Assembly: GCF_008275125.1 (NCBI RefSeq)
Contig: NZ_CP043473.1
Location: 930,001-994,000, forward strand
DNA: 64,000 nt
Direction of reading: 5' to 3'
Source of the DNA: Chromobacterium paludis
GTDB lineage: Bacteria; Pseudomonadota; Gammaproteobacteria; Burkholderiales; Chromobacteriaceae
Shown here in pieces: positions 45,261 through 63,244 of this stretch. A model generated the notes under the pieces. It was not told where the DNA came from and did no database searches. It saw only the letters and a list, made by a program, of their open reading frames with translations. Position 1 is the first letter of the stretch. Every line of letters begins with the position of its first letter. A program made the translations under genes and the position numbers.

Positions 45261-48106
45261 TACAGGATTTCCCATTCACCGGACCCGATCAGAGTCTTGA
45301 TGTTGTTGACGCCGGGCAGATGGAGGCGGTCGGTCATGCCGCTGCTGTTCAGCGTGCCGGACGCGATTTTCTTGCCGGTATCGGCGGAGTAGTAGACGTA
45401 TTTTTTGCCGCTGAACTCGGGATGCGCCTCAGTTAGCAACTGGGCATCGATCTGCTCGGTGCAGACGATCTTTTTGTACTGCGGTTGTGACCAATCCATG
45501 CAGGCTGGGCCATCGAGTGTATGGCTGGCGCCCTTTACCGTTACTTTGCCGGGGGCATGGACCTCGATATTGCCGCCCTTGATGCGAATGTAGGCGCCGC
45601 CGGCGGTCAGCAAGATTTCGTCGCCGGCGTGGACGATAATCTTGTCCTTGCATGAGGTGATGGTGACATCCTTATCCGCCGTCAGCTCCATCGCGTCGCT
45701 CTGCGCCTGCACCTGCACTTTGCCCTTGGCGGCGATCAGCTTCAGCGCCACCTTGTCTTTCACCCCGGCCACGAACAGGCTGATGTGCTGGCCCACGTTG
45801 TGCAGCCAGCGCCGGCCCGTGGTGTGGTTGGCGTCGCGCTGGGCGACCAGGTTGAGGTTGGTCCCTGCAGAGACGGTTTGGCTTTGTTCGGTCAGGGAGG
45901 CGATGCCGGCCGGGCCGGACAGGATCAGCAGCGGCTGTTGGCCGGCTTGTTCTTTCGCGGTTTTGCCGTCTTTGTCGGTGTTGCTGCCGGCTTCCCAGGC
46001 TTTGAGCGCGTCGACGTGGTGCTGCAGGTGCCCATCTGGCTTTTTGCCGGTTTTGGCGTTGTCCGGGCCGATTTCGTCGGGGCCGGTTTCCATGGTGTCG
46101 GCGAGCTGCCCGCTGGCGGTTTCGGCCAGCGCTTGGCTGAGCGACAGCGCCGCGTCGAGTTGGGATTGGGCGTGTTCGCGCGCCAGCTGTTTGCCGCCGG
46201 CGCCGTTCTGCGCTTCGGTGGACAGCAGCAGGCCGTGGGCGGCGCGGATGGCGCCGTGCTGGTCGGTGCGCAGCTCGAAACCATCGCCGCGCGGCTGGGC
46301 TTTGCCGTGGCTGCGCGGATGGGTGAGGAAGCCCTGATTCAGCTGGGTCTTGCCGGATTCGCTGGATAGTTTGGCGCGCACTTCGCCGGGGGTGTCGTCG
46401 AACAGCAGCTCGTTGTAGCCGCCGCCCTGGTGTTCTTTCGATTTGATGCCGGACAGCGTTTTGTTGGCGGGCAGCGCGCCGGCGCCGCTGAAGTCCGGCG
46501 TCGGGTGGCTGCCGTTGTACAGCACGCCAGTGATCACGGGGCGGTCAATGTCGCCTTCGATGAAGTCGACCAGCACTTCCTGGCCGATGCGCGGGATGAA
46601 CTGGTGGCCGAAGCCGGCGCCGGCGCTGGGCATGGCCACGCGCAGCCAGCAGCTGGATTTGTCGTCGAGGTTGGCGCCGAACTGGGCATGTTCCTGCGGC
46701 CGTTGCCAGTGGAACTGCACCTTGATGCGGCCTTGGGCGTCGGTGTAGATCTCGTCGGCGGCTTGGTCCGTCGGTTCGGCCGGGCCGACCACGGTGGCGG
46801 TTTGCACGCCGAGCGAGGTGGGTTTGGCCTGCGCGGTGTGGGCGTAGGCCGGGGTTAGCGGGATGCCGCGGCGCTGGGCCTGGATGCGGGTGGTGAAGGG
46901 GCTCTCGCTCGCGGCGAGACGCCCCCTCTCCCCCTGCCCCTCTCCCGCGAGGGGAGAGGGGAGGAAACGACCCTTGCCAGCGCCGTTCTCTTGCAAAGCG
47001 GCGTCGGTGGCGAGCCCTGCCGCCAGCAGGCCCGGCGCGGCCAGGCTCAGTTGCTGGGCCAGGTCGGCCGGCAGGTTGTTGCGGGCGTGAAGGGTTTGGC
47101 CGGTGACGACGAATTCGCGGTCTTGCGCGCTGTCGGTTTCGTGCGCCGGGTGGTCGTCCAGGCGGAACCACTGGCCGGCGGTCAGGCCGCGCAGGGTGCC
47201 GCCGCCTTCAAATTGTTTGGCTTGCAGGTCGTAAGCCTGCTGCCGCAGCTGGGCGTAGCGGGAGAGCGGTTCGGCGCCGCCGGCGTAATACAGGCCTTGC
47301 GGGTCGTAGTCCTGCAGGGTGGATTGCAGCGCGGCGCCATCCTGGCCTTGCTCGATGCGGCTTTGATCGCCCACCTGCTGGGTGGACACCGGCTGGTAGT
47401 CGAAAGTGGCCAGCGCCACCTGGCCGGGCACGATCTGGCGCGCGGCCTGCCAGTCGGTCAGGCCGTCTTCTTCCTCGGTGGCGTCGGCGCGGTGGAAACG
47501 CGCGCGCTCGATCTGGGCCGGCGGCAGGCTGTAGACGTCGTCGAACACCACCAGCTTGACCTGGGGCGCGTCGCCGTCCACATGCTCGAAGCGCCAGGCG
47601 TAACCCTCTTCGTGCATCAGTCGCACGATGAAGTCGTAGTCGCTCTCGCGGTATTGCAGGCAGTAGCTGCGCGCATCGGCCTGGCCCACTTGCAGCGCCA
47701 GCGCCTGGCCGCGGGCGAAGGCGGGGTTGGCTTGCTGATGCTCGGTCAGGATCTGCTCGATGATCTGCGGAACGGTCAGGTCCTGGAACACGCGCGAAGT
47801 GCGGCGGTGGCGCAGCAGGGCGAACGGCGGTTCGATGGTCAGCGCGTACTTGGCGAAGCCGCCGTCCGCGCCTTCCAGCTTGGCCTGGCTGACCACGCCG
47901 CAGCGGATGGACTCGCCGCCCTGGGCGTCCTCGATGCCGATGCGGGCCGGCAGGCCAAGCAGGGTCTTCAGCTCGATGGCGCCGTCCGGCGACAGGCAGC
48001 GGACGGTGAAGCGATACGGCCGGGACACCCCTTCCTCGCCGTCCAATGCCAGCGGCGGCAGCTGTTCGGCGGCGGTCCTGGGTGAAGGCGGAGGCGAAGC
48101 TGGCAA
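45260..48106 (-). CDS. vgrG: VgrG1, T6SS spike protein (altered N-terminus)
   Basis: The protein of 948 residues, read from a TTG at 48106, forms the trimeric T6SS puncturing spike. The gp27/gp5-like body includes RRTSRVFQDLTVPQIIEQIL, YCLQYRESDYDFIVRLMHEEGYAWRFEH, the OB-fold with GRIKVQFHWQ and IPRIGQEVLVDFIEGDIDRPVITG, and the DUF2345 region. The C-terminal 90 or so residues are private and look like a transthyretin-type adaptor (KKYVYYSADTGKKIASGTLNSSG). Compared with vgrG2, 38 bases are missing between two GCCGCC repeats near 48070, so the native ATG at 48125 (MDLSTLLASFASAFTQDRR) is out of frame with the body. Either a TTG start loses about 30 residues, or the gene is off. It is downstream of tssE and leads the cargo operon. 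Confidence 0.85.
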   Translation of the reverse strand: MPASPPPSPRTAAEQLPPLALDGEEGVSRPYRFTVRCLSPDGAIELKTLLGLPARIGIEDAQGGESIRCGVVSQAKLEGADGGFAKYALTIEPPFALLRHRRTSRVFQDLTVPQIIEQILTEHQQANPAFARGQALALQVGQADARSYCLQYRESDYDFIVRLMHEEGYAWRFEHVDGDAPQVKLVVFDDVYSLPPAQIERARFHRADATEEEDGLTDWQAARQIVPGQVALATFDYQPVSTQQVGDQSRIEQGQDGAALQSTLQDYDPQGLYYAGGAEPLSRYAQLRQQAYDLQAKQFEGGGTLRGLTAGQWFRLDDHPAHETDSAQDREFVVTGQTLHARNNLPADLAQQLSLAAPGLLAAGLATDAALQENGAGKGRFLPSPLAGEGQGERGRLAASESPFTTRIQAQRRGIPLTPAYAHTAQAKPTSLGVQTATVVGPAEPTDQAADEIYTDAQGRIKVQFHWQRPQEHAQFGANLDDKSSCWLRVAMPSAGAGFGHQFIPRIGQEVLVDFIEGDIDRPVITGVLYNGSHPTPDFSGAGALPANKTLSGIKSKEHQGGGYNELLFDDTPGEVRAKLSSESGKTQLNQGFLTHPRSHGKAQPRGDGFELRTDQHGAIRAAHGLLLSTEAQNGAGGKQLAREHAQSQLDAALSLSQALAETASGQLADTMETGPDEIGPDNAKTGKKPDGHLQHHVDALKAWEAGSNTDKDGKTAKEQAGQQPLLILSGPAGIASLTEQSQTVSAGTNLNLVAQRDANHTTGRRWLHNVGQHISLFVAGVKDKVALKLIAAKGKVQVQAQSDAMELTADKDVTITSCKDKIIVHAGDEILLTAGGAYIRIKGGNIEVHAPGKVTVKGASHTLDGPACMDWSQPQYKKIVCTEQIDAQLLTEAHPEFSGKKYVYYSADTGKKIASGTLNSSGMTDRLHLPGVNNIKTLIGSGEWEIL

Positions 48107-48144: not shown

Positions 48145-48621
48145 TTAGCCCTGTACTTTGTAAACGTTGGAGGAAAGCTGCAGCGTGGCGTCGAATGTCA
48201 CCGGCGGTTTGTGCGGATGCACCTTGAGCACCGCGTCCACGCGGAAGCGCAGGTGGCGTTCCATCTCGCGCGGCGCGTCCAGGCTGACGCGCACGCGCGA
48301 CAGTCGGGGCTCGTGCAGCTCGATGGAGCGGCGCAGCTGTTCGCGCAGCAGCTCCCGGTCGTCCGGATTGAGCAGGCTGATGCCGGACAGGTCCGGGATG
48401 CCGTAGCTGAGCAGGCTGTCGCGGACGTGGGGGAAGGGGTCCAGCGCGTCCAGTGGCATCAACCGGGTATTGAGCAGGGCTTCCAAATCGCGCGCCAGCG
48501 CCCGTTTGAACTGGGCCAGTTCAAACAGGCTGATGGATTCGATGTGGCTCTGATCCGGCTCGTCGTCCAGCAGCCGGTCCAGCACCGATGGCAGGATCTG
48601 CGCGTGGCGATTGCCGCTCAT
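48145..48621 (-). CDS. tssE: T6SS baseplate protein TssE
   Basis: A 158-residue gp25-like baseplate wedge protein. PSVLDRLLDDEP at the start, RDLEALLNTR followed by SLLSYGIPDLSGIS, and IELHEPRLSRVRVSL are typical of TssE. The ATG at 48621 overlaps the tssL stop as ATGA; the longer frame to 48717 is a shadow of tssL. It is followed 20 bases on by vgrG1, so the minus-strand operon is tssJ-tssK-tssL-tssE-vgrG1 and cargo. Confidence 0.92.
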   Translation of the reverse strand: MSGNRHAQILPSVLDRLLDDEPDQSHIESISLFELAQFKRALARDLEALLNTRLMPLDALDPFPHVRDSLLSYGIPDLSGISLLNPDDRELLREQLRRSIELHEPRLSRVRVSLDAPREMERHLRFRVDAVLKVHPHKPPVTFDATLQLSSNVYKVQG

Positions 48622-49319
48622 AGCCCGAACACGGCGGCCGCCTGGCGGCCCAGCATCCAGCGGAAGGCGACGAAGATGCCGGCGCCGGCCACGGCCAGCA
48701 GCGCGAAATACAGCCACAGCGGCAGCTCGTGCCGCACATAGGCCTGGAAGCGTTGCGGCAGCTGCCAGTGCGGGGCGAAGTCAGCCTTGCCGCCGCGCAC
48801 TTGCTGGATTTCCTGGCCCAGCTTGTGCACCAGATAGCCCAGCTTCTCCTGGCCCTCCAACAGGTATTTGCCCTGGAAGCCCAGCAGCAGGCAGGTATAG
48901 AACACTTCCAGCGCTTCCACGTGGGCGGCAGGATTGTCGCGCAGCTGTTCCAGGCGATTGAAGAAGCCTTCGCCGGCCAGGTGCTCGCCGAACAGGCGCA
49001 GCTGCAGCGGCATGCGTTCCCATTCGTCGCGCAAGGCGAAGTCCGAAGACAGGATGATTTCGTCCATCAGCGCGCAAAACGCATACTTGGCGTGGCCGAT
49101 GGCACTGGCGTCCTTGCCGAAGTTGCGCGCGTTGCGCTCGAACTGGCTCAGGAAATGGTCCACGCGGCGGTTGAACTCCACCGCGCTGCTGGGCGCGTTG
49201 CCTTCCTTCAGCAGGAACAGCAGATAAATGCCGTCCTCCAGCATTTCTCGCAGATTGGGAGCGGAGGGCGCGGCGACGTCGATGACGCGTTCCGCGGTTT
49301 GGGTCAGGGTTGTGTTCAT
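48618..49319 (-). CDS. tssL: T6SS inner-membrane protein TssL (DotU family)
   Basis: A 233-residue protein with a cytoplasmic DotU domain (LREMLEDGIYLLFLLKEGN, KYAFCALMDEIILSS, FFNRLEQLRDNPAAHVEALEVFYTCLLLGFQGKY) and a single C-terminal membrane anchor (about 205-225). It forms the T6SS membrane complex with TssM and TssJ. It has no fused OmpA-like peptidoglycan-binding domain; the OmpA-like lipoprotein at 59793 may supply that. It starts 6 bases after tssK and overlaps tssE by 4. Confidence 0.93.
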   Translation of the reverse strand: MNTTLTQTAERVIDVAAPSAPNLREMLEDGIYLLFLLKEGNAPSSAVEFNRRVDHFLSQFERNARNFGKDASAIGHAKYAFCALMDEIILSSDFALRDEWERMPLQLRLFGEHLAGEGFFNRLEQLRDNPAAHVEALEVFYTCLLLGFQGKYLLEGQEKLGYLVHKLGQEIQQVRGGKADFAPHWQLPQRFQAYVRHELPLWLYFALLAVAGAGIFVAFRWMLGRQAAAVFGL

Positions 49320-49325
49320 GGTGTG

Positions 49326-50672
49326 TTAGCGGAAGACCGCGATCAGTTCTATTGAAATATTGGCCAGGGTTTGCGGCACGTAGATGCAGACGCTGCGCGA
49401 TTGCAGCATGCGGCTGTAGATCTCGCTGTGCGGCTCAAAGGCGAAATAGTGATTGCCCACGCGAACCGGAATGGCGGACGGGGTTTGGGCGGTGTAGTCC
49501 AGGCTGACGCCGCGCATGGCGGAGTTAAGGATGCGTTCCACATCGTCCGGGGCGCCGATTTTCAGCTTGAGCGGCACGCTCTCGATGATCTGGGCGGCCG
49601 GCAGATCGCTTTGCACCGATAGGTAGAAGTCCACGTTTTCCAGCAGGCGGTCGCTTTCCAGGCGGCCGATGTGGAAGGATGGGCGCGGCGAGTGCAGCGG
49701 GATCACCTTGTAGCGCGCGGAGACCACGGTTTCCAGCAGCTCGCGGATTTGCAGGTCCAGCGGCGGGAACACCTCGTGCAGCTTGTCATGGCGATAGGCC
49801 GGGATGTCGGACAGCGTGTAGAGCGTGGTGAAGGTTTGCAGCTCGCCGCAGAACTCCGCCAGCGCCATGTACAGCTCTTCCGGGTGCAGGGGCTGACACT
49901 GCGACAGGTGGCGCAGGCGCGCGAAATTGCGGTTTACCGTGTGCAGCAGCCAAAACGAGCTGATGTCGGCGGAGCCGAACTCCATCACGCTCTTGGCGCG
50001 CTCGCGGTGCGCGCCGGCCAGGGCCTGGCTCTTCACCAGCAGGATATCCAGCAGGCGGCGCAGCATCTGCATCATTTCGGCCGAGCCTTCAATCGCCAGC
50101 AGGGGAGGCAGGTAGTCCTTGGCCACGGTCCATTGTCCGGTGGCGTCCTTTTCCAGCTGGCACAGCGCGATGGCGTCGTAGCCGTCGCGGTTTTCTTCTT
50201 CCAGCATCAGCTTCACGTCCAGTTGCAGCGTGGACAGGTCCGCCGGTAGCGCCTGGGTGTACAGGTCTGCCGTCTCGGCGTGATCGCTGTGGAAGCGGGT
50301 GGGGCGGGCGCCGGCTTCGCCATTGCGGGTATTGCCGCCATAAGGCTGCAACTGGGCCAGGCAGGCGTAGAGCGTGGTGCGGATGCCCAGCTGCGGCAGC
50401 GTGGACAGGTCGCGGCTCAGCGGCAGCGGGCCATTGCTGGGAGCCTGATACAGGGTGCCGTCACGAAACAGCAGGGCCAGTTCGTCAGCCCGGATCTGTC
50501 CGCCTTTGAGCGCGGCCTCGTCCAGGGTCAGGCGATGCACCCCCCAGGCATGGCGATGGGTCAGCTGCAGCAGGCTGGATTGCGTCTGCTCCTGAAACAG
50601 GGCTTGTTGCTGGAAATGCTGAGGGCGAAGAAACATGCCCTCGCCCCATAAAATTCTATTTGCATGAAGCAT
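49326..50672 (-). CDS. tssK: T6SS baseplate connector TssK
   Basis: A 448-residue trimeric protein that ties the baseplate to the membrane complex. The start ANRILWGEGMFLRPQHFQQQ is the family hallmark, and HPEELYMALAEFCGELQTFT and YFAFEPHSEIYSRMLQSRSVCIYVPQTLANISIELIAV near the end also match. Length is normal. Confidence 0.95.
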   Translation of the reverse strand: MLHANRILWGEGMFLRPQHFQQQALFQEQTQSSLLQLTHRHAWGVHRLTLDEAALKGGQIRADELALLFRDGTLYQAPSNGPLPLSRDLSTLPQLGIRTTLYACLAQLQPYGGNTRNGEAGARPTRFHSDHAETADLYTQALPADLSTLQLDVKLMLEEENRDGYDAIALCQLEKDATGQWTVAKDYLPPLLAIEGSAEMMQMLRRLLDILLVKSQALAGAHRERAKSVMEFGSADISSFWLLHTVNRNFARLRHLSQCQPLHPEELYMALAEFCGELQTFTTLYTLSDIPAYRHDKLHEVFPPLDLQIRELLETVVSARYKVIPLHSPRPSFHIGRLESDRLLENVDFYLSVQSDLPAAQIIESVPLKLKIGAPDDVERILNSAMRGVSLDYTAQTPSAIPVRVGNHYFAFEPHSEIYSRMLQSRSVCIYVPQTLANISIELIAVFR

Positions 50673-50717: not shown

Positions 50718-51251
50718 TTATTGACCGGTGCCGGGGCATTCTATTTTGCCGCTGTTCGGTTGATCCGGCAGGGCGATGGATTCAGGTTTTATGGCCTTTA
50801 AATAGCACTCGCCAACTTTGAATTTAAGGTCTTTGCTGCGCACTCTTCCCGCGTCATAAAGCAAGCGCCAGAAATGAGAATTGGGCTGGCGAAAGAAGGC
50901 GATCACGCCAACATAATTGGCATTCTCCAGAATGGTTAAATCCAACTCTTTTTTGTCACCTGGCAAAAAGGTCAGGTCCTGACTCGATAAAACATCAGAC
51001 CCCAGCATGTCTTGAATTGGTTTGCCACTGGCCAAAAGGTCAGGTGTCAGCAGTTTGAAGGCCTGGTCGCTTTTGAGTTGGTACACCTGAACCTGTACGG
51101 ACAAGGGTTTGCCTTGCCTGTCCAGGTTCAGCCTCGGGCTTGCCTCGCTTGCCAGGGTGATATTCTTCGGGCCGGCGCAGCCATTGAGCAATGCTAATGC
51201 CGCGGCCAATGGAAGAAGAATGAATTTGTGCCAGAAGGTGTTGTGATTCAT
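50718..51251 (-). CDS. tssJ: T6SS outer-membrane lipoprotein TssJ
   Basis: A 177-residue lipoprotein with signal and lipobox L-L-N-G-C25. The mature part is the beta-sandwich that binds TssM: SVQVQVYQLKSDQAFKLLTPDLL, VGVIAFFRQPNSHFWRLLYDAG and the closing KIECPG, as in the family. It heads the minus-strand T6SS operon and is divergent from tagX, with about 170 bases of shared promoter region. Confidence 0.93.
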   Translation of the reverse strand: MNHNTFWHKFILLPLAAALALLNGCAGPKNITLASEASPRLNLDRQGKPLSVQVQVYQLKSDQAFKLLTPDLLASGKPIQDMLGSDVLSSQDLTFLPGDKKELDLTILENANYVGVIAFFRQPNSHFWRLLYDAGRVRSKDLKFKVGECYLKAIKPESIALPDQPNSGKIECPGTGQ

Positions 51252-51425
51252 ACAATCTGAGCCAGGAAAGTAGGGGTTGGAAATAAGAATGTCAGATGCA
51301 AATTAATCATGGCCTCGCCATATTGCCCGTTTGGCATTTTAATATGGGGGCTTGACTTCTTCGCAAAACAAATCAAGCATATCGCGTTATTCGGATTCAC
51401 ATCAATCTTTCGTATAAATTTTTCC

Positions 51426-52283
51426 ATGATGGTTTTGGCGCCGCTTGCGGTGGTTTGCGTCGTACTGCTTTTGCTGTGGCTGGGTTGGCGGTTTTTCCTT
51501 GGCGGAGCAAGGCTTCGCGTAGAGCAGTCGTCGATTGCAAATCCCCTGAATATGACCTGCGAGCCGGTGGAAATAAACCCGGCGCATCCCCCTATTTTTC
51601 GTCGTCTCAAGGGGGGGTATGACTTGCTTGCGGAGTGGTGGGGCAGGGCGATGCCATGGCTGCTGCCGCTGTTGTCGTTGGGATTGGTCAGCTTGGTTGT
51701 TGTAATTACGCTGCACTTTGCCGGGTATCACCAAGATTCACAGCTGCAACCGCAAAGTTATGCAAACGGCAATCAGATACGGCAGGCGCTGACTGAGGAA
51801 AAGCTGGTCCCGCCGCCGCCGGTGGCCGCCGAGGTGTTCCGCGACGCAGTGGCGGAGAGGCCCCAGTTGGCGTTGGATAAGGCCGACCGGGACTGGGGCC
51901 ATATGGATCAGGCCTTTGTGCAGGACGTGCTCCGCGTGATGGAGCGCATGAAGACGCGTGGATTCCCGATGGTGTTGCTGGAGGGTTACCGCAGCGCCGA
52001 TCGGCAAAACCACCTGGCGGGCGGCAGCGTCAAGGTGACGCAGGCCAAGGGCGGCGAGAGCAAGCACCAGTATGGCCTGGCCGCCGACCTGGCGCCGGTG
52101 CGCAACGGCAAGGTGGTGATTTCCGAGCGCGATGAGTGGGCGATGCAGGCCTACACGGCGCTGGGCGAGGAAGCCAAGGCCCAAGGTTTGGGCTGGGGCG
52201 GCGATTTCAGTTTCCGCGATTACGGCCACATCGAGCGGGCCGGTTCGCTGCGCGCGCTGTTGGCGCGGCGCGCCAAGCAATGA
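51426..52283 (+). CDS. tagX: TagX-like T6SS-associated peptidoglycan peptidase (M15 family)
   Basis: A membrane protein of about 285 residues with two hydrophobic segments (about 3-26 and 78-102) and a C-terminal M15/VanY-like domain (about 160-280). Zinc-binding elements are visible in SKHQYGLAADLAP (His and Asp) and RDYGHIE (His). TagX of Acinetobacter is a peptidoglycan hydrolase thought to open the wall for T6SS assembly, and the position here beside tssM fits. The start is uncertain: 51426, 51429 or 51309, none with a clear ribosome site. Its first segment and basic loop resemble a signal anchor. Confidence 0.8.
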   Translation: MMVLAPLAVVCVVLLLLWLGWRFFLGGARLRVEQSSIANPLNMTCEPVEINPAHPPIFRRLKGGYDLLAEWWGRAMPWLLPLLSLGLVSLVVVITLHFAGYHQDSQLQPQSYANGNQIRQALTEEKLVPPPPVAAEVFRDAVAERPQLALDKADRDWGHMDQAFVQDVLRVMERMKTRGFPMVLLEGYRSADRQNHLAGGSVKVTQAKGGESKHQYGLAADLAPVRNGKVVISERDEWAMQAYTALGEEAKAQGLGWGGDFSFRDYGHIERAGSLRALLARRAKQ

Positions 52284-52317: not shown

Positions 52318-55300
52318 GTGTCTAACAAGGGTTGGCTACGCAATGCCAAAATTGCTTCGGCGATCGGGTTTCTGATCCTGATCGCGCTGATCTGGTGGGT
52401 AGGGCCATGGCTGGGCTTGCAGTCGCTGGAGTCGCGCCTGGGCTGGATCGTGGCGGTCATGATGGTCTGGGTCGTCGCTTTGCTGATCGGCCAGGCGTTG
52501 GCCAAGCGCGCAGGCGGCATGCTGGAAGGCATGCTGCGCCGCCAGGCGGATGATGCGGTGATCAACGCCAGCGCCGACAAGCGCGCGGAAGTGACGCTGT
52601 TGCGCCAGCGTTTGCTGGGCGCCATCGACACGCTGAAAAAATCCAATATCGGCAACGCCCGCGGCAGCGCGGCGTTGTACGAGCTGCCGTGGTACATGAT
52701 CATCGGCCACCCGGCGGCCGGCAAGAGCTCGGCCACCCGGCGGCCGGCAAGAGCTCGGCCATCCTGCAGTCCGGCCTGAGCTTCCCGTTCAGCGACAAGA
52801 GCGGCATCCAGGGCATAGGCGGCACCCGCAACTGCGACTGGTTCTTCTCCACCGAGGGCGTGCTGCTGGACACCGCCGGCCGCTACGCCACGGAGAGCGA
52901 GGACCGCGGCGAATGGCTGGCCTTCCTCAAGCTGCTTAAGAAATACCGCGCCAAGGCGCCGGTCAACGGCATCATGGTGGCCATCAGCCTGCCGGAATTG
53001 GCGCAGCACAATAGCGAGGGCTTCGTGTTGTACGCCCGCCAGGTGCGCGAGCGCATCCACGAGGTGTGCAACACCTTCGGCCTGATGGTGCCGATTTACC
53101 TGGTATTCACCAAGCTGGACCTGCTGGGCGGCTTCTCCCAGTTTTTCGCCGAAGCGGGCGAGGAGGAGCGTTCCCGCGTCTGGGGCGCCACGCTGTCCGC
53201 CGACCAGGGCACCGGTTTTGACGCCGCCGCCGTGGTGTCCAAGCAGTTCGAGCAGCTGTACCGCGGCTTGGTGCAGATGGGCGAAGAAAAGCTGGTGGGC
53301 GCGCGCGGCGACGCGGTGAAGTCCGCGCACTTCGCCTTCCCGATCGAATTCCATGGTTTGCAGGAGGCGGTGGTCAAGTTCGTTCGCATCCTGTTTGAAG
53401 AAGACCCGTACCATTCCCGTCCGCTGCTGCGCGGCTTCTATTTCACCAGCGCCTTGCAGGAAGGCGTGCCGCGCATCGTGACCGCCGGCCGCGTGCAGGG
53501 CCAGTTCGACCTGTCCTCGTCCAGCCTGGACAAGAACCAGACGCCGGCTTCCTACAGCTACTTCCTGCGCGGCCTGTTCCGCGAGGTGCTGTTCCCGGAC
53601 CAACATCTGATCTTCCAGCAAACCAAGCCCGGCGGCAGCCGCCTGCGCCTGGCGGGCATGGTGGCCGGCGTGCTGAGTCTGGCCGTCGTGGCCGGGCTGT
53701 GGACCTGGTCCTATATCGGCAACCAGCGGATGATCGCCCAAGTCAGCGCGGAGCGCGTCCAGTCACAGAAACTGGCGGCTTCGGGCCAGCTGTATGATCG
53801 GCTGAACAGCCTGCTGATCCTGCAGCGCCGGATCGAGCAGTTGCAATCGTACCGGCGCAACGGCGCGCCGTGGCAGGTCGGCCTGGGCCTGTACCAGGGC
53901 GAGGCGCTGGAGCGCAATCTGCGCAAGGCTTATTTTGCCGGCGTGAAGGACGTGATGCTGCAGCCGGTGCAGAAGAACCTGGAAACCACGTTGGCGGCTT
54001 TGAAGCCCGGCGCGGTGCAGCCGGCGAAAGTCATCGAGGCGCCCAAGCCCGAGGCCAAGCCGGAGCCGAAGCCGGTCAAGCCCAAGGCCAAGCGCCATGG
54101 CCTGCCCAATATCCAGCTGGGCTGGCTGGAGCTGCCGCAGCGCGCCACGGCGGGCAAACTGGACCCGTCCGCGCCGGCCCTTGCCGGCGACGAGCAGAAA
54201 CAGCCGCAACTGGATGTGGCCTACAACGCGCTGAAAACCTATCTGATGCTGCACGATCCCAAGCGCATGGAAGAGGCGCATCTGGCCGACCAGCTGCCGC
54301 GCTACTGGCGCCCGTGGCTGGAGAGCCAGCGCGGCGAATATCCGGTGAGCGAAGTGATGGGTCTGGCCGAGCAGGTGCTGGCCTTCTACATCAGCCAGAT
54401 CAAGGAAGCGGACCTGCCGCTGATCGACAACGATCCCAAGGTGGTGACGGACGCGCGCGAAGTGCTGCGCGGCTCGTTCAAGCAGCTGTCCGCGCAGGAA
54501 CGCGTGTTCAACGAGATCAAGGCGCGCGCCAATACCCGCTTCGCGCCGCTGACCGTGGCTCGCATCCTGGACAACCGCGACATGGACATCATGGCCAGCA
54601 GCCAGATGGTGGAAGGCGCTTACACCCGCGAGGCGTGGAACAGCTATGTGCGCGCCGCCATCGACGATGCCAGCAAGGGCACGATACGCAGCGACGACTG
54701 GGTGCTGGCGTCCAGCACCCAGGATGACCTGGGCAAGGACGGCAACGTGGAGAAAAACCGCGCCGCGCTGGAGGCGCTGTACCGCGCCCAGTACATCGCC
54801 GCCTGGCACAAGTTCCTGGCCGGCGTGGTAGTGCGCGACATCACCAATCCGGCGCAGTCCGCCTCGGCCATGACGCGTTTGTCCGACAAGCAGAACTCGC
54901 CGATCAAGCTGATCCTGGCGCGCGCGGCGCAGGAAACGTCCTGGGACAACCCGTCCGAGCTGAACCGTTCGCTGGAAACCGCCAAGCGCTCCGTGCTGGA
55001 GAAAACCACGGAATTCTTCAAGAGCGGCGACAGCCAGCCGGAGGCCAAGGTTGAAAAGCAATATGGCGTAGTGGGCGCGCACTTTGCCGGCGTGGCCGCG
55101 CTGGTGAAGGGCGACAACGCGCCGATCAACGGCTACCTGGACCAACTGGGCAAGCTGAAGATGAAGATGGCGGCCATCGCCACCACCGATCAACCGGGGC
55201 CGCAGGCGCGCGCCGCGCTGCAGGCCACGCTGAACGGTTCCGGCTCGGAGCTCGGCGATACCCAATCCTATGTCGACAACACCCTGCTGGCCGGCGCCGG

Positions 55301-56096
55301 CGCCGACACCATCGAGATGGTGCGTCCCATGCTGGTGCGTCCGCTGACCCAGTCCTACGGCGCGCTGCTGGGACCGGTGGCGCAGGACATCAACCAGGCC
55401 TGGGCCAACGAGGTGCTGCCGCAATGGAAGCAGCTGGCCGGCAAGTATCCGTTCAGCGACTCCAGCACCAGCGCCTCCGTCGCGGAAATCAACCGCTTCG
55501 TCAAGGCCAACGACGGCACGCTGGACAAGTTCATCAACAAATACCTGACCGGCCTGGTGCAGAAGCAGGGCGACAACCTGGTGCCGCGCGCCTGGGGCAG
55601 CCAGGGCGTCCGCTTCAATCCTGAATTCCTGAACAGCGTCAGCCGGCTGAGCGCGCTGGCCAGCAGCCAGCTGCAGGACGGCGAGAACAGCCGCTTCGAG
55701 TTGCAGCCGACGCCGACGCCCGGCCTGTCGGAGATCGTGCTGAGCATAGACGGCCAGGAATTGCGCTACCGCAACGGCCCGCAGCCGTGGCAGCCGTTCA
55801 ACTGGCCGGGCAATGCCGGCGACGGCGGCGCGCGCATCCAGGTGGTGAACTACGCCGGCGCGAGCACCGTGGTGGGCAACCAGCACGGCCGCATGGGCCT
55901 GATGCGCCTGCTGGCCAGCGCCAAGGTCAATCAGGACGGCGCGGAGGGAACGGCCCAACTGGTCTGGACCCTGCCCAAGGGCAGCGGCGCCGAGGGCCAG
56001 ACCGTGCGTTTCAATTTCCGCATGCTGGGCGGCGTGAACCCGCTGCAGTTGAATCGGCTTTACAAACTGACGTTGCCTGAACGCGTGACGTTGTAA
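52318..56096 (+). pseudogene. tssM: T6SS membrane-complex protein TssM, frameshifted in the P-loop
   Basis: Two frames together encode a full TssM (IcmF) of about 1251 residues once a duplicated 26 bases is removed. The first part (52318-52779) has TM segments (about 15-33 and 42-62) and reaches GHPAAGKSSA, the Walker A motif (about 130). The second (frame open from 52689 to 56096) repeats GHPAAGKSSA and continues with ILQSGLSFPFSDKSGIQGIGGTRNCDWFF, a third TM (about 440-460) and the large periplasmic domain that binds TssJ and spans the cell wall. As written, translation stops at about residue 154, which should abolish the T6SS membrane complex. A GTG at 52318 follows GGGGAAGG. The stop overlaps tagF by one base. 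Confidence 0.85.
52704..52755 (+). repeat. 26 bp tandem duplication in tssM
   Basis: Two perfect 26-base units (52704-52729 and 52730-52755) start CGGCCACCCGGCGG and end AAGAGCT. They encode the Walker A motif GHPAAGKSS. As 26 is not a multiple of three, the extra unit shifts the frame. Confidence 0.95.
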
Positions 56097-57127
56097 TGGA
56101 GAAGAAGGTCATGGCGTTCAATTTCAAGCGCGCGCAGGAGGTGCCTCCGCAATTCTGCATCTTCGGCAAGCTGCCCCGGCGCGCGGACTTTGTCCGCGTC
56201 AACGCCACCCACCCGGCGGCGATGCAGCTGGACCAGCTCTTGGCGCAAAGCCTACAGCGGCTGGAGGCGGGCGAGGAGGCCACGCGGCGCTATCTGGCGA
56301 TGCCGCCCACCTCGTTTGTGCTGAAAACGCGCGACCAGCAATGGCTGTCGCTGGGCGTGATCCAGCCCAGCCGCGACGAGGGCGGCCGCAACTACCCCTT
56401 GGTGGCGGCCTCGCTGGTGGCGCTGGACCCGGCCCTGCCGCCGACGGCCATTCTGCTGCTGGCCAATGAGTTGTTCTTCACCGGGCTGAAAGACCAGCTG
56501 GCCAGCGCCATCGACAACTCGGTGGAGATGCTCGCCTGCAAACAGTTTTTGGAAGAGCAGCTGCGCTTTGGCGCCTCGTCCGTCGCGGACATCGAACTGG
56601 CGCAGCAACTGCTGGAAAAGCATCTGGCGGTGACGCCGGCCTCCAGCCTGGCGCATAGCCTGGCTGCCGGCGGCCGCGGCGACCTGGAAACGGTGCTGCT
56701 GGCCTTTGTGTTCCATCACCGGCTGCTGAAGAAATTCCGCGACAGCCTGCCGGTGCAAGCCTACTTCCTGCCGCTGCCGGCGGTGGAGGGGGAAAACGTG
56801 CTGGCCGCCGTCACCTGGCTGGCGCTGTATCACGCCGCGACCGACGGCAACGGCGAGCTGGAGCAATGCCTGATCCTGCGCCGTCCGGAAGGCCATGTGC
56901 TGGCGCTGCTGCCGGCCGGGCTGAACGAGCCGATCGCGGCGCAATGCTGGGGCGCGGCGCTCGACCCCAAGCACGTGGTGGACGTGGACGACGCCAAGGC
57001 GCCGTGGCGCAGTCATCAAGCTTACGCGGAGGCAGCCTATGTCTTGGGCCGCCAGCTGAACGATCCCGGCCTGTCGCTGGCGCAGTTGCGCGGCGTGCTG
57101 GCCAGTTTGTCGCGCAACATCGCGTAG
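56096..57127 (+). CDS. tagF: T6SS-associated protein TagF
   Basis: A 343-residue protein of the TagF (DUF2094) family. FCIFGKLPRRADFVRVNATHPAAMQLDQLLAQSLQ is the typical N-terminal block, followed by VIQPSRDEGGRNYPLVAA. In Pseudomonas TagF represses T6SS assembly post-translationally. No PpkA kinase, PppA phosphatase or Fha protein is in the window. It overlaps tssM by one base (TAATG). Confidence 0.9.
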   Translation: MEKKVMAFNFKRAQEVPPQFCIFGKLPRRADFVRVNATHPAAMQLDQLLAQSLQRLEAGEEATRRYLAMPPTSFVLKTRDQQWLSLGVIQPSRDEGGRNYPLVAASLVALDPALPPTAILLLANELFFTGLKDQLASAIDNSVEMLACKQFLEEQLRFGASSVADIELAQQLLEKHLAVTPASSLAHSLAAGGRGDLETVLLAFVFHHRLLKKFRDSLPVQAYFLPLPAVEGENVLAAVTWLALYHAATDGNGELEQCLILRRPEGHVLALLPAGLNEPIAAQCWGAALDPKHVVDVDDAKAPWRSHQAYAEAAYVLGRQLNDPGLSLAQLRGVLASLSRNIA

Positions 57128-57165: not shown

Positions 57166-57681
57166 ATGGGTAAAGAGAGCACTCAGAAAAAACTGTCGAG
57201 GGTCCGCCCGCCGCGCGTGCAGATCACCTATGACGTGGAGATCGGCGACGCGATCGAAACCAAGGAACTGCCCTTCGTGCTGGGCGTGCTGGGCGACTAT
57301 TCCGGCCACAGCAAGGAACCGCTGCCGAAGATGAAGGAGCGCAAGTTCGTCCAGATCGACCGCGACAACTTCGACGAAGTGCTGAAGGGCATGGCCCCGC
57401 GCCTGGCGATGAAGGTGGACAACGCGCTGAAGGACGACGGCAGCCAGCTGGGCGTGGAACTGGAGTTCCAGAGCCTGTCCGACTTCGAACCGCAAAACGT
57501 GGTGCGCCAGATCGAGCCGCTGAATCAGCTGCTGGAGGCGCGCACCCGCCTGGCCGACCTGCGCAACAAGCTGTCCGGCAACGACAAGCTGGAAGAGCTG
57601 CTCGACGAAGTGGTGCGCGACACCGAGAAGCTGCGCCAGATCGGCCAGCAAGCCGGCAAGCAGGAAGGAGGCGAACAGTGA
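57166..57681 (+). CDS. tssB: T6SS sheath small subunit TssB
   Basis: A 171-residue sheath protein. ESTQKKLSRVRPPRVQITYDVEIGDA and LPFVLGVLGDYSG are hallmarks, followed by RDNFDEVLKGMAPRLAMKVDN. With TssC it forms the contractile sheath recycled by ClpV, whose gene is not in the window. It overlaps tssC by 4 bases. Confidence 0.96.
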   Translation: MGKESTQKKLSRVRPPRVQITYDVEIGDAIETKELPFVLGVLGDYSGHSKEPLPKMKERKFVQIDRDNFDEVLKGMAPRLAMKVDNALKDDGSQLGVELEFQSLSDFEPQNVVRQIEPLNQLLEARTRLADLRNKLSGNDKLEELLDEVVRDTEKLRQIGQQAGKQEGGEQ

Positions 57682-59156
57682 GCGCGGAACTGCAACAACA
57701 GGCCGCTCCGGCCGCCGCCGATGCCTCCAGCCTGCTCGACAACATCATCGAGCAGAGCCGCATTGCCTCCAATGAGAGCGAAAAGAGCCACACCCGCGAC
57801 TTGATCGGCGAACTGGTGGACCAGGTATTGCAAGGCAGCGTCACCGTCTCGCGCGACCTGTCGGCCAGCATAGACGCGCGCATCGCCGAGATCGACCAGC
57901 TGATCTCCGACCAGCTGAACAATGTGATGCACCATGCCGACTTCCAGAAACTGGAAGCGTCCTGGCGCGGCCTGAACTATCTGGTGATGCAGTCTGAGAC
58001 CGGCACCCAGCTGAAGATCAAGGTGCTGAACGCGTCCAAGAAGGACCTGGTCAAGGACTTCAAGTCCGCCGCCGAGTTCGACCAGAGCGCGCTGTTCAAG
58101 AAAATCTACGAAGAAGAATACGGCACTTTCGGCGGCGCGCCTTATGGCGCCCTGGTGGGCGACTACGAATTCACCCGCCATCCGGAAGACTTCTACCTGA
58201 TGGAAGAGCTGTCGCACGTGGCCGCTTCCGCCCATGCGCCGCTGATCTCATCGGCCGCGCCGGGCCTGTTTGGCCTGGAAACCTTCGCCGATATCGGCAA
58301 GCCGCGCGACCTGAGCAAGATTTTTGACACCGTCGAGTATGCCAAGTGGAAATCTTTCCGCGAATCGGAAGACTCTCGGTATGTCGGCCTGGTGCTGCCG
58401 CACGTCCTGGGCCGCCTGCCGTACGGCCGCGACAACGTGCCGGTGGAGGCGTTTGACTTCGAGGAAAACGTCGACGGCAGCAACCACGACAAATATCTGT
58501 GGACCAACGCGGCTTACGCCTTCGCCGCGCGTCTGACCGACGCCTTCGCCCAGTATGGCTGGCTGGCCGCCATCCGCGGCGTGGAGGGCGGCGGCCTGGT
58601 GGAAGGCCTGCCGGCTCACACCTTCAAGACCGACGACGGCGAAGTGGCGCTGAAGTGTCCGACCGAAGTCGCCATTACCGACCGCACGGAAAAGCTGCTG
58701 TCCGATCTGGGCTTTATCTCGCTGGTGCACTGCAAGAACACCGACTACGCGGCCTTCTTCGGCGGCCAGTCTGCGCAAAAGGCCAAGACCTACAACACGG
58801 ACTCGGCCAACGCCAACGCGCGTCTGTCCACGCAGCTGCCTTACATCTTCGCCGTGTCCCGCATCGCGCATTACATGAAATCCATCATGCGCGACAAGAT
58901 CGGCAGCTTCGCCTCGCGCCAGAACGTGCAGGACTACCTGAACACTTGGCTGTCGCAGTACGTGCTGCTGGACGACTCCGCCAGCCAGGAGGCCAAGGCG
59001 AAATACCCGTTGCGCGAAGCGCGCGTGGACGTGGTGGAAGTGCCGGGCAAGCCCGGCGTCTATCGCGCCGCCGCCTTCCTGCGTCCGCACTTCCAGCTGG
59101 ATGAGCTGACCATTTCTCTGCGTCTGGTGGCCGAGTTGCCGCAACCGGCCGGCTAA
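57678..59156 (+). CDS. tssC: T6SS sheath large subunit TssC
   Basis: A 492-residue sheath protein starting at a GTG (57678) that overlaps the tssB stop, with GGAGG upstream inside tssB. Typical blocks are LNNVMHHADFQKLEASWRGLNYLV, LVGDYEFTRHPEDFYLMEELSHVAA, LPYGRDNVPVEAFDFEE and the C-terminal LRPHFQLDELTISLRLVAELP. Length is normal. Confidence 0.96.
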   Translation: MSAELQQQAAPAAADASSLLDNIIEQSRIASNESEKSHTRDLIGELVDQVLQGSVTVSRDLSASIDARIAEIDQLISDQLNNVMHHADFQKLEASWRGLNYLVMQSETGTQLKIKVLNASKKDLVKDFKSAAEFDQSALFKKIYEEEYGTFGGAPYGALVGDYEFTRHPEDFYLMEELSHVAASAHAPLISSAAPGLFGLETFADIGKPRDLSKIFDTVEYAKWKSFRESEDSRYVGLVLPHVLGRLPYGRDNVPVEAFDFEENVDGSNHDKYLWTNAAYAFAARLTDAFAQYGWLAAIRGVEGGGLVEGLPAHTFKTDDGEVALKCPTEVAITDRTEKLLSDLGFISLVHCKNTDYAAFFGGQSAQKAKTYNTDSANANARLSTQLPYIFAVSRIAHYMKSIMRDKIGSFASRQNVQDYLNTWLSQYVLLDDSASQEAKAKYPLREARVDVVEVPGKPGVYRAAAFLRPHFQLDELTISLRLVAELPQPAG

Positions 59157-59217: not shown

Positions 59218-59715
59218 ATGGCTTTTGATGCATTCCTGAAGATTGATGGCATTCCGGGCGAAAGCGGTGACGACAAGCACAAAGACTGGATCGAAATCCA
59301 GTCCTTCAACCACAAGCTGGAGCAGCCGGCCCAGGTTTCCGCCAGCACCGCTGGTGGCGCCACCGCCGAGCGCGTGAACCACAGCATGTTTGAAATCACC
59401 CACTTCCTGGACAAAGCCAGCCCGAAGATCTACGAAGCTTGCTGCACGGGTAAGCACATCAAGGAAATCACCATCGAGCTGTGCCGTTCCGGCGGCGACA
59501 AGCTGAAGTACATGGAAGTGAAGATGGAGCAAGTTCTGGTTTCCAAGGTTGAGCCGCAAGGTTCCGCCAACGACACCGGCTTCCCGTCTGAAAAAGTGAG
59601 CTTCAGCTACGGCAAGATCAAGTGGACCTACACCCAGCAGAAGCGTGCCGACGGCCAAGGCGGCGGCAACGTCAGCGCGGGTTGGGACCTCACCGCCAAC
59701 AAGACCATCGCCTAA
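59218..59715 (+). CDS. hcp: T6SS tube protein Hcp (TssD)
   Basis: A 165-residue Hcp ring protein. AFDAFLKIDGIPGESGDDKHKDWIEIQSFNHKLEQP is the classic start, with EITHFLDKASPKIYEACCTGKHIKEITIELCRSGGDKLKYMEVKM in the middle. The ribosome site AAGGAG lies 8 bases before the ATG. It is flanked by two hairpins, consistent with high separate expression. No C-terminal effector extension is present. Confidence 0.97.
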   Translation: MAFDAFLKIDGIPGESGDDKHKDWIEIQSFNHKLEQPAQVSASTAGGATAERVNHSMFEITHFLDKASPKIYEACCTGKHIKEITIELCRSGGDKLKYMEVKMEQVLVSKVEPQGSANDTGFPSEKVSFSYGKIKWTYTQQKRADGQGGGNVSAGWDLTANKTIA

Positions 59716-59759: not shown

Positions 59760-59792
59760 ATGCCTTTTTTTAGTCAAGTGGGAAAATCTGTC

Positions 59793-60349: not shown

Positions 60350-62847
60350 ATGGACCTCAGCACCCTCCTTGCCAGCTTCGCCTCCGCCTTCACCCAGGAC
60401 CGCCGCCAGCTCACGCTGTCGCTCGGCGCCGGCAGCATCGCCGCCGAACAGCTGCTGCCGCTGGCATTGGACGGCGAGGAAGGGGTGTCCCGGCCGTATC
60501 GCTTCACCGTCCGCTGCCTGTCGCCGGACGGCGCCATCGAACTGAAGACCCTGCTTGGCCTGCCGGCCCGCATCGGCATCGAGGACGCCCAGGGCGGCGA
60601 GTCCATCCGCTGCGGCGTGGTCAGCCAGGCCAAGCTGGAAGGCGCGGACGGCGGCTTCGCCAAGTACGCGCTGACCATCGAACCGCCGTTCGCCCTGCTG
60701 CGCCACCGCCGCACTTCGCGCGTATTCCAGGACCTGACCGTCCCGCAGATCATCGAGCAGATCCTGACCGAGCATCAGCAGGCCAACCCCGCCTTCGCCC
60801 GCGGCCAGGCGCTGGCGCTGCAAGTGGGCCAGGCCGATGCGCGCAGCTACTGCCTGCAATACCGCGAGAGCGACTACGACTTCATCGTGCGACTGATGCA
60901 CGAAGAGGGTTACGCCTGGCGCTTCGAGCATGTGGACGGCGACGCGCCCCAGGTCAAGCTGGTGGTGTTCGACGACGTCTACAGCCTGCCGCCGGCCCAG
61001 ATCGAGCGCGCGCGTTTCCACCGCGCCGACGCCACCGAGGAAGAAGACGGCCTGACCGACTGGCAGGCCGCGCGCCAGATCGTGCCCGGCCAGGTGGCGC
61101 TGGCCACTTTCGACTACCAGCCGGTGTCCACCCAGCAGGTGGGCGATCAAAGCCGCATCGAGCAAGGCCAGGATGGCGCCGCGCTGCAATCCACCCTGCA
61201 GGACTACGACCCGCAAGGCCTGTATTACGCCGGCGGCGCCGAACCGCTCTCCCGCTACGCCCAGCTGCGGCAGCAGGCTTACGACCTGCAAGCCAAACAA
61301 TTTGAAGGCGGCGGCACCCTGCGCGGCCTGACCGCCGGCCAGTGGTTCCGCCTGGACGACCACCCGGCGCACGAAACCGACAGCGCGCAAGACCGCGAAT
61401 TCGTCGTCACCGGCCAAACCCTTCACGCCCGCAACAACCTGCCGGCCGACCTGGCCCAGCAACTGAGCCTGGCCGCGCCGGGCCTGCTGGCGGCAGGGCT
61501 CGCCACCGACGCCGCTTTGCAAGAGAACGGCGCTGGCAAGGGTCGTTTCCTCCCCTCTCCCCTCGCGGGAGAGGGGCAGGGGGAGAGGGGGCGTCTCGCC
61601 GCGAGCGAGAGCCCCTTCACCACCCGCATCCAGGCCCAGCGCCGCGGCATCCCGCTAACCCCGGCCTACGCCCACACCGCGCAGGCCAAACCCACCTCGC
61701 TCGGCGTGCAAACCGCCACCGTGGTCGGCCCGGCCGAACCGACGGACCAAGCCGCCGACGAGATCTACACCGACGCCCAAGGCCGCATCAAGGTGCAGTT
61801 CCACTGGCAACGGCCGCAGGAACATGCCCAGTTCGGCGCCAACCTCGACGACAAATCCAGCTGCTGGCTGCGCGTGGCCATGCCCAGCGCCGGCGCCGGC
61901 TTCGGCCACCAGTTCATCCCGCGCATCGGCCAGGAAGTGCTGGTCGACTTCATCGAAGGCGACATTGACCGCCCCGTGATCACTGGCGTGCTGTACAACG
62001 GCAGCCACCCGACGCCGGACTTCAGCGGCGCCGGCGCGCTGCCCGCCAACAAAACGCTGTCCGGCATCAAATCGAAAGAACACCAGGGCGGCGGCTACAA
62101 CGAGCTGCTGTTCGACGACACCCCCGGCGAAGTGCGCGCCAAACTATCCAGCGAATCCGGCAAGACCCAGCTGAATCAGGGCTTCCTCACCCATCCGCGC
62201 AGCCACGGCAAAGCCCAGCCGCGCGGCGATGGTTTCGAGCTGCGCACCGACCAGCACGGCGCCATCCGCGCCGCCCACGGCCTGCTGCTGTCCACCGAAG
62301 CGCAGAACGGCGCCGGCGGCAAACAGCTGGCGCGCGAACACGCCCAATCCCAACTCGACGCGGCGCTGTCGCTCAGCCAAGCGCTGGCCGAAACCGCCAG
62401 CGGGCAGCTCGCCGACACCATGGAAACCGGCCCCGACGAAATCGGCCCGGACAACGCCAAAACCGGCAAAAAGCCAGATGGGCACCTGCAGCACCACGTC
62501 GACGCGCTCAAAGCCTGGGAAGCCGGCAGCAACACCGACAAAGACGGCAAAACCGCGAAAGAACAAGCCGGCCAACAGCCGCTGCTGATCCTGTCCGGCC
62601 CGGCCGGCATCGCCTCCCTGACCGAACAAAGCCAAACCGTCTCCGCCGGGACCAACCTGAACCTGGTCGCCCAGCGCGACGCCAACCACACCACGGGACG
62701 ACGCTGGATTCACAACGTGGGCCAGCACATCAGCCTGTTCGTGGCCGGGGTGAAAGACAAGGTGGCGCTGAAGTTGATCGCCGCCAAGGGCAAAGTGCAG
62801 GTGCAGGCGCAGAGCGATGCGATGGAGCTGACGGCGGATAAGGATGT
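60350..62847 (+). repeat. Long inverted repeat, right arm (vgrG2 body)
   Basis: This arm is the partner of 45665-48125 in the opposite orientation. The match starts at the ATG and ends at the codons for TADKDVTITS. The 12 kb between the arms carries the T6SS core genes. Confidence 0.9.
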
Positions 62848-63244
62848 GACCATTACCTCGGTCAAACAGAAAATCCAGTTCAACGGCAAACAGGAAATCC
62901 TGCTGACCAGCGGCGGCGCTTATGTGCGCATCAAGGGCGGCAAGATCGAGTTGCACGCGCCGGGCACCGTCAGCTTCAAGGGGGCGAGCCATGATTGGAG
63001 CGGCGGAACGAGTTTGGGTCAGATGTTTAATTCGATGCCCGATGCCAAGTTTGATAATAAATACCAAATTCTTGATGAGCATACGGGCCAGCCATTGATA
63101 AATCAGAAATACAAAATAATTCGTCAGTCAGGAGAGGCGGAACTGGGCATCACGGATAGCAATGGTTTTACTCATGTTGTCAAAAATCCTGATGTGGCGG
63201 AGAAATTGCAACTGCACTTGGTCATGTCAAAAAAGAAGAGTTAA
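60350..63244 (+). CDS. vgrG: VgrG2, T6SS spike protein
   Basis: A 964-residue VgrG with an intact start MDLSTLLASFASAFTQDRRQL. The body matches VgrG1 almost residue for residue, including the in-frame LPSPLAGEGQGERG insert near 400. After TADKDVTITS (about 832) it differs: DUF2345 continues as KQEILLTSGGAYVRIKGGKIELHAPG, then a private tail of about 90 residues with a transthyretin-like repeat (YQILDEHTGQPLINQKYKIIRQSGEAELGITDSNGFTHVV). Such tails bind the cognate effector. The next gene, 44 bases on, is the candidate cargo. Confidence 0.93.
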   Translation: MDLSTLLASFASAFTQDRRQLTLSLGAGSIAAEQLLPLALDGEEGVSRPYRFTVRCLSPDGAIELKTLLGLPARIGIEDAQGGESIRCGVVSQAKLEGADGGFAKYALTIEPPFALLRHRRTSRVFQDLTVPQIIEQILTEHQQANPAFARGQALALQVGQADARSYCLQYRESDYDFIVRLMHEEGYAWRFEHVDGDAPQVKLVVFDDVYSLPPAQIERARFHRADATEEEDGLTDWQAARQIVPGQVALATFDYQPVSTQQVGDQSRIEQGQDGAALQSTLQDYDPQGLYYAGGAEPLSRYAQLRQQAYDLQAKQFEGGGTLRGLTAGQWFRLDDHPAHETDSAQDREFVVTGQTLHARNNLPADLAQQLSLAAPGLLAAGLATDAALQENGAGKGRFLPSPLAGEGQGERGRLAASESPFTTRIQAQRRGIPLTPAYAHTAQAKPTSLGVQTATVVGPAEPTDQAADEIYTDAQGRIKVQFHWQRPQEHAQFGANLDDKSSCWLRVAMPSAGAGFGHQFIPRIGQEVLVDFIEGDIDRPVITGVLYNGSHPTPDFSGAGALPANKTLSGIKSKEHQGGGYNELLFDDTPGEVRAKLSSESGKTQLNQGFLTHPRSHGKAQPRGDGFELRTDQHGAIRAAHGLLLSTEAQNGAGGKQLAREHAQSQLDAALSLSQALAETASGQLADTMETGPDEIGPDNAKTGKKPDGHLQHHVDALKAWEAGSNTDKDGKTAKEQAGQQPLLILSGPAGIASLTEQSQTVSAGTNLNLVAQRDANHTTGRRWIHNVGQHISLFVAGVKDKVALKLIAAKGKVQVQAQSDAMELTADKDVTITSVKQKIQFNGKQEILLTSGGAYVRIKGGKIELHAPGTVSFKGASHDWSGGTSLGQMFNSMPDAKFDNKYQILDEHTGQPLINQKYKIIRQSGEAELGITDSNGFTHVVKNPDVAEKLQLHLVMSKKKS
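61549..61591 (+). repeat. Palindromic GC repeat embedded in vgrG2
   Basis: The same 43-base block as at 46922-46964, identical in both vgrG genes, so it was there before the genes duplicated or was spread by gene conversion. Confidence 0.7.

What the first reader, a model, noticed from the sequence alone, without database searches (positions are those of the whole stretch)
52690..52780. tssM is broken by a perfect 26 bp duplication inside its Walker A motif
The unit 52704-52729 is repeated at 52730-52755, so GHPAAGKSS is encoded twice and the frame shifts; removing one unit gives a single frame of about 1251 residues, normal for TssM. Since all other T6SS genes from tssJ to hcp look intact, the lesion seems recent. 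It could be an assembly error, a knock-out, or a reversible on/off switch in which a population gains and loses the unit by slippage.
Basis: partly seen in the sequence, partly recalled or inferred. Interest (0 to 1): 0.72.

Follow-up and report, generated by a model that had tools for sequence, protein, structure and literature searches.

The report
Short duplication breaks a tssM gene
In one Chromobacterium genome, a 26-letter stretch written twice in a row splits a gene for the anchor of a bacterial spear-like weapon; it looks like a recent, ordinary slip of DNA copying that may be easily undone, but no switching is shown.

Summary
A perfect 26-bp tandem duplication (52703-52754, plus 7 bp of a third copy to 52761) lies in the Walker A codons of tssM in a Chromobacterium type VI secretion cluster. 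It splits the gene into a 5' frame (52318-52779) and a 3' frame (open 52554-56096); GHPAAGKSS is encoded once in each. None of 94 distinct related sequences has two units; 14 of 18 same-genus genomes hold an uninterrupted orthologue. Both pieces show purifying selection like neighbouring T6SS genes, without further stops, so the lesion is young or an assembly error. The 7-bp repeats bounding the unit point to slippage or microhomology-mediated duplication. Best reading: a recent loss-of-function mutation that could revert like other short tandem duplications. Nothing shows an evolved switch: no multi-copy array, the repeat pair is mostly not conserved, and no second isolate could be compared. 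An A6 run in the frame overlap makes recoding conceivable but unlikely. In-ORF tandem duplications as on/off switches are already reported for pneumococcal capsule genes.

The parts
52703..52728 (+). first 26-bp unit (Walker A codons of tssM)
52729..52754 (+). second, identical 26-bp unit
52755..52761 (+). 7 bp of a third partial copy: the short direct repeat that bounded the unit before duplication (inferred)
52318..52779 (+). frame A: tssM 5' piece, 153 codons from GTG 52318 (TTG 52315 is the alternative start), with the N-terminal hydrophobic stretches and Walker A, then a 14-residue tail unlike the family and a stop
   Evidence: (TIGR03348 positions 2-129)
52554..56096 (+). frame B: open stop to stop; holds the second Walker A copy and the rest of TssM (PF14331, PF06761, PF21070, PF06744); its first start codon, GTG 52689, has no visible ribosome-binding site
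52636..52641 (+). A6 run (two AAA codons of frame A) inside the stretch where both frames are open; the only homopolymer of 5 or more there
50718..51251 (-). tssJ, open
49326..50672 (-). tssK, open
48618..49319 (-). tssL (DotU), open
48145..48717 (-). tssE (gp25), open
51309..52283 (+). M15-family peptidase gene between tssJ and tssM
56096..57127 (+). tagF, open
57166..57681 (+). tssB, open
57678..59156 (+). tssC, open
59218..59715 (+). hcp (tssD), open
60350..63244 (+). vgrG (tssI), open

Best explanation
A recent spontaneous tandem duplication, made by replication slippage or template misalignment between two 7-bp direct repeats 26 bp apart, knocked out tssM of the main T6SS in the sequenced Chromobacterium isolate, either in nature or during laboratory passage. 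Shown: the exact duplication, the 7-bp partial third copy, the split frames, single-unit alleles in the 94 related sequences examined, and selection on both pieces. Inferred: that the DNA is as assembled, that the gene product is non-functional, and that the two-unit allele can collapse back like other short tandem duplications.
For: The array of 2 x 26 + 7 bp is exactly what misalignment on a 7-bp direct repeat leaves. 0 of 94 distinct related sequences have two units and none has an open frame under 1150 aa at this site. 14 of 18 same-genus genomes carry an uninterrupted orthologue. dN/dS against four named relatives is 0.127-0.200 for the 3' piece and 0.080-0.089 for the 5' piece, within the 0.042-0.248 range of eight neighbouring genes (two of the 32 neighbour values could not be computed), and neither piece has a further stop. 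In the nearest named relative (C. sinusclupearum, L002) the same spot has a 10-bp repeat pair at 26-bp spacing, one of the two longest out-of-frame pairs (spacing 10-100) in its tssM. A passage in PMC10268840 speaks of the essentiality of VasK/TssM for sheath assembly.
Against: No raw reads and no second isolate could be examined: the genome collections hold one genome per species, and the protein database is clustered at 90%, so a conspecific could be hidden in the window's own cluster (2 member sequences, 1 contig). An assembly or library artefact is therefore not excluded. Rescue by recoding or reinitiation was not tested by experiment.
Confidence: 0.66

Rival explanations
1. Reversible on/off switch: the population is a mixture of one-unit and two-unit cells, interconverting by slippage, so T6SS firing is bet-hedged at the tssM locus.
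For: In-ORF tandem duplications causing capsule phase variation are reported for pneumococcus (Waite 2001 and 2003, seen only as titles in the reference list plus one passage of PMC4022640). A 2026 review describes reversible microhomology-mediated tandem duplications in fungi (PMC13207564 passages). 14 of 94 related sequences have a 7-11-bp repeat pair at the same 26-bp spacing, because the codons for I-G-H-P and S-A-I-L resemble each other one base out of frame (read).
Against: Only two copies, not a contingency-locus array. 80 of 94 related sequences have less than 7 bp of repeat there, and 0 of 94 show two units. The nearest named relative's tssM has 18 out-of-frame repeat pairs of 7 bp or more at spacings of 10-100 bp, so such pairs are common. 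No population data. A literature search on T6SS, phase variation, tandem and duplication listed 15 of 19 papers, none of whose titles or abstract openings described such a switch.
Confidence: 0.12
2. Assembly or sequencing artefact: the cell has one unit and an intact tssM.
For: No other sequence examined shows the two-unit form (0 of 94; the truncated 5' frame was found only in the own contig among 33 hits, of which 10 were read), and both frames are otherwise free of stops and under selection.
Against: A clean 26-bp duplication bounded by microhomology is a typical biological signature. No other perfect tandem duplication of 12 bp or more occurs in the 123 kb of this genome examined, so there is no sign of systematic duplication errors. 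Sequencing method and coverage are unknown.
Confidence: 0.15
3. The gene is still used through recoding: slippage at the A6 run at 52636-52641 or reinitiation yields some TssM, as poly-A transcriptional frameshifting does for Citrobacter rodentium tssM1.
For: Both frames are open from 52554 to 52779, and an A6 run lies in that overlap. In C. rodentium an interrupted tssM1 is rescued at an A11 run with about 20-25% efficiency (PMC4256274 abstract and Discussion). Sequencing of transcripts in PMC6260861 found insertion rates below 1% at T6, T7 and A7 runs (passage), and a ribosome can slip at tandem AAA codons (recalled, dnaX-like), so low-level recoding cannot be ruled out.
Against: With reporters, E. 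coli RNA polymerase showed no detectable slippage below eight A (PMC6260861 passages). A runs of 6 or more also occur within the 90 nt upstream of the motif in 9 of 94 related sequences, none of which has two units, so the run need not be a compensation. GTG 52689 has no visible ribosome-binding site, and later in-frame starts of frame B would lack Walker A.
Confidence: 0.05

Closest known systems
Spontaneous in-ORF tandem duplications causing pneumococcal capsule phase variation (Waite et al. 2001, 2003)
   Same: A short duplication inside one reading frame abolishes a function and is in principle reversible.
   Different: There, switching is reported by the titles (reference list of PMC4022640; the papers themselves not read); here only one sequence is known and no reversion has been seen.
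Interrupted tssM1 of Citrobacter rodentium rescued by poly-A transcriptional frameshifting (PMC4256274)
   Same: Same gene, premature stop, and an A run upstream of it in a stretch open in both frames.
   Different: A11 a few bases before the stop and a missing C-terminal domain there; here A6, and the break is at Walker A near the N-terminus, caused by a duplication.
Microhomology-mediated tandem duplications (reviewed in PMC13207564, passages)
   Same: Two copies bounded by short direct repeats, described as inherently unstable.
   Different: Described there for fungi; here a bacterium, with no rate measured.
Main T6SS cluster of Chromobacterium violaceum ATCC 12472 (PMC9430734, passages)
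   Same: Genus, two divergent gene blocks, core tss genes and tagF.
   Different: C. violaceum has a single, active T6SS; the present genome has two T6SS clusters and a split tssM in the main one.

Membership tests
TssM / IcmF (T6SS membrane-complex subunit) | NCBIfam TIGR03348 over its cut-off, and IcmF domains PF14331, PF06761, PF21070, PF06744 | tested here: met
   3' piece 615 bits against a cut-off of 388 and all four Pfam domains; 5' piece 78.8 bits (below the whole-protein cut-off) to TIGR03348 positions 2-129
TssM / IcmF (T6SS membrane-complex subunit) | one continuous reading frame of about 1250 codons | tested here: not met
   split into frames A and B; 14 of 18 same-genus genomes have it open
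Microhomology-mediated tandem duplication | two perfect copies bounded by a short direct repeat present before the event | tested here: met
   2 x 26 bp plus 7 bp; single copy in 94 of 94 related sequences
Phase-variable (contingency) locus | interconversion of alleles within a population | not testable with these tools
   needs reads or colonies; collections hold one genome per species
Phase-variable (contingency) locus | conserved unstable repeat at the site in related genomes | tested here: not met
   7-bp or longer pair at 26-bp spacing in 14 of 94; two-unit alleles in 0 of 94
Recoded tssM (C. rodentium type) | A/T run long enough for efficient RNA polymerase slippage in the frame overlap | tested here: not met
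   longest run is A6; at least 8 A needed for detectable reporter activity with E. coli RNA polymerase (PMC6260861 passages); the host's own polymerase was not tested
Recoded tssM (C. rodentium type) | two length variants of the protein made | not testable with these tools
   needs protein data

The most novel reading that the evidence does not exclude
Chromobacterium and its neighbours carry, by accident of the codons around Walker A, a 7-11-bp repeat pair that makes tssM a recurrent site of reversible 26-bp duplication, so that single cells gain and lose the whole T6SS1 membrane anchor by slippage: a genetic, rather than regulatory, on/off control of a T6SS.
Probability: 0.08. Interest if true: 0.6.

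Novelty: new member of a known kind. Interest (0 to 1): 0.3.

Why it matters
If the duplication is real and fixed, this isolate has probably lost its main T6SS and should not be used as a T6SS1-active reference; annotation would show two fragments. If it flips, it would be a DNA-level on/off control of a T6SS, which could explain isolates with complete clusters but no activity, and amplicon length could test it directly.

Tried and rejected
Chance repeat: rejected. Systematic duplication errors in the assembly: no sign in 123 kb, but a single local error is not excluded. Strong hairpin driving the duplication: the single-strand DNA fold of 52690-52775 is not better than shuffles (z -0.53). Old pseudogene: made unlikely by dN/dS and by the absence of further stops. 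A conspecific second genome with either allele: none seen, but the tools could hardly show one (one genome per species; protein clusters at 90%). The same lesion in other truncated TssM pieces: of 33 hits to the 5' piece I read 10, one of them the own piece; the other nine end or lose frame elsewhere and none shows this tail. A solved TssM structure covering the N-terminal part: the four PDB matches begin at residue 503 or later of the 3' piece. Species name: genus Chromobacterium from relatives; a guess from recall that it is C. paludis was not confirmed. First regular expression for Walker A was wrong and found nothing; corrected. In one search the line labelled frame C was given the wrong offset and repeats frame A; it was not used. 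Literature searches gave no paper on a bacterial case like this in their listings, apart from the leads cited.

Full report
OBSERVATION. Bases 52703-52728 are repeated without mismatch at 52729-52754, and 7 bases of a third copy follow to 52761. A run of 33 matches at one offset is expected about 2e-12 times over the window by a simple base-composition estimate. It is the only perfect tandem duplication (unit 12-1000 bp) in the 123 kb of this genome held here. A scan of 83 loci, 1,066,376 bases (80 from relatives, 3 own; units 12-300 bp), found 15 perfect duplications, 14 with units of 12 or 13 bp and one of 18 bp. Loci L083-L111 were left out of that scan because several copy the same genomes.

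WHAT IS BROKEN. The gene is tssM, the IcmF-like membrane-complex subunit of a type VI secretion system. The 5' piece (frame A, GTG 52318 or TTG 52315 to the stop at 52777-52779) matches TIGR03348 positions 2-129. The 3' piece (frame B, open from 52554 to 56096) carries PF14331, PF06761, PF21070 and PF06744 and scores 615 bits against a cut-off of 388. The Walker A sequence GHPAAGKSS is read once in each frame. After the break, frame A adds a 14-residue tail unlike the family and stops. The first start codon in frame B is GTG 52689, with no recognisable ribosome-binding site before it; later in-frame starts would lack Walker A.

SURROUNDINGS. In the window tssJ, tssK, tssL, tssE, tagF, tssB, tssC, hcp and vgrG are open, and tssF, tssG, tssH and tssA follow outside it. 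An M15-family peptidase gene lies between tssJ and tssM. A PAAR gene was not sought. The genome is one contig of 4,279,774 bp. It has a second T6SS cluster at about C1:2,255,700-2,274,700, with genes matching TssA, B, C, Hcp, E, F, G, K, L, VgrG, a Clp-type ATPase in the place of TssH, and an open 1350-residue divergent TssM (PF14331 137 bits; TIGR03348 95 bits, below its cut-off; no PF06761 or PF06744 match). A TssJ for it was not assigned. So the break concerns the main cluster only, and the cell may still have a T6SS.

RELATIVES. Of 18 same-genus genomes, 14 hold an orthologue with 75-92% identity and an uninterrupted frame of 1246-1308 codons, one (G017) is divided between two contig ends, one (G011) has only distant matches, and two (G003, G008) have none. 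Of loci L001-L111, 2 are the window itself, 102 show the Walker A site (94 distinct sequences) and 7 (L010, L105, L107-L111) do not show it in the DNA held; 0 of the 94 have two units and none has a frame under 1150 codons. These collections hold one genome per species, so conspecific isolates could not be compared. In the protein database, clustered at 90%, the 3' piece falls in its own cluster of 2 member sequences on 1 contig and the next hit is 88% identical. The truncated 5' frame was found only in its own contig among 33 hits. Of ten of those hits read, the nine others end or lose frame at other places, so broken or partial TssM pieces exist elsewhere (or are sequencing errors), but none with this tail.

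AGE. Taken as two separate pieces and compared with four named relatives, tssM shows dN/dS of 0.127-0.200 (3' piece) and 0.080-0.089 (5' piece). Eight neighbouring genes give 0.042-0.248, with two of their 32 values not computable. No further stop was found in either piece. The lesion is therefore young, or not present in the cell at all.

MECHANISM. An array of two full units plus 7 bp is what misalignment between two 7-bp direct repeats 26 bp apart leaves behind. In relatives the same two spots show 7-11 identical bases in 14 of 94 sequences, 10 in the nearest named relative, because codons for I-G-H-P and S-A-I-L happen to resemble each other one base out of frame (read). In that relative's tssM there are 69 repeat pairs of 7 bp or more at spacings of 10-100 bp, 18 of them out of frame; this one is among the two longest out-of-frame pairs. 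The site is thus mildly predisposed, but such pairs are common. The single-strand fold of the region is unremarkable.

SWITCH OR KNOCK-OUT? Any short tandem duplication can collapse again (general knowledge; reviewed for fungi in PMC13207564, passages). In pneumococcus, spontaneous duplications within capsule genes are reported to cause phase variation (Waite 2001, 2003; seen as titles in the reference list and one passage of PMC4022640). Here there is one sequence, no reads, no second isolate, no array, and the repeat pair is shorter than 7 bp in 80 of 94 relatives. I therefore rate a functional switch at 0.12 and a plain recent mutation at 0.66.

RECODING. Frames A and B are both open from 52554 to 52779, and the only homopolymer of five or more there is A6 at 52636-52641. 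Citrobacter rodentium tssM1 is rescued by transcriptional slippage at A11 (PMC4256274, abstract and Discussion). With reporters, E. coli RNA polymerase did not slip detectably below eight A, although transcript sequencing in the same paper found insertions below 1% at T6, T7 and A7 runs (PMC6260861 passages). A runs of 6 or more occur in the 90 nt upstream of the motif in 9 of 94 relatives that have no duplication. Rescue is possible in principle but unlikely to be efficient.

ARTEFACT. A local assembly error cannot be excluded without reads; the rest of the examined DNA gives no hint of such errors.

LITERATURE. Searches on tssM with frameshift (25 of 36 papers listed), T6SS with phase variation, tandem and duplication (15 of 19 listed) and short tandem duplication with phase variation (1 of 1) showed, in titles and abstract openings, no report of a tssM broken by a tandem duplication. 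These searches cover only the open library.

VERDICT. A real sequence feature, most simply a recent duplication that inactivates the main T6SS of this isolate: a new example of a known kind of mutation. Interest is modest and rises only if population data show flipping.

Noticed in passing
own genome C1:2255732-2274698 (L113, L114): Second, divergent T6SS cluster with its own open TssM of 1350 residues, which has no PF06761 or PF06744 match at E 0.001; tssJ not assigned.
   Followed up: partly
51309-52283: M15-family peptidase encoded between tssJ and tssM; by recall, the Acinetobacter T6SS-associated hydrolase TagX has a related role. In two of four relatives compared (L003, L007) its aligned region contains one stop.
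   Followed up: no
45260-48106 and 60350-63244: Two long VgrG genes with DUF2345 regions, one on each strand: the first in the minus-strand block beyond tssE, the second in the plus-strand block between the OmpA-like gene and tssF.
   Followed up: no
39613-41612: Two adjacent transposase-like ORFs (DDE_Tnp_1 matches), next to an ankyrin-repeat gene (41709-42269).
   Followed up: no
44010-45275: Gene beside the minus-strand vgrG with an NADase-type glycan-binding domain match (NF047619); a possible VgrG-linked gene.
   Followed up: no
59760-60236: Small OmpA-like protein gene between hcp and vgrG.
   Followed up: no
protein P0132, related TssM piece from another contig: A related TssM 5' piece loses frame right at the Lys-Lys codons that correspond to the A6 run here; either an indel in the A run or a sequencing error.
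   Followed up: no
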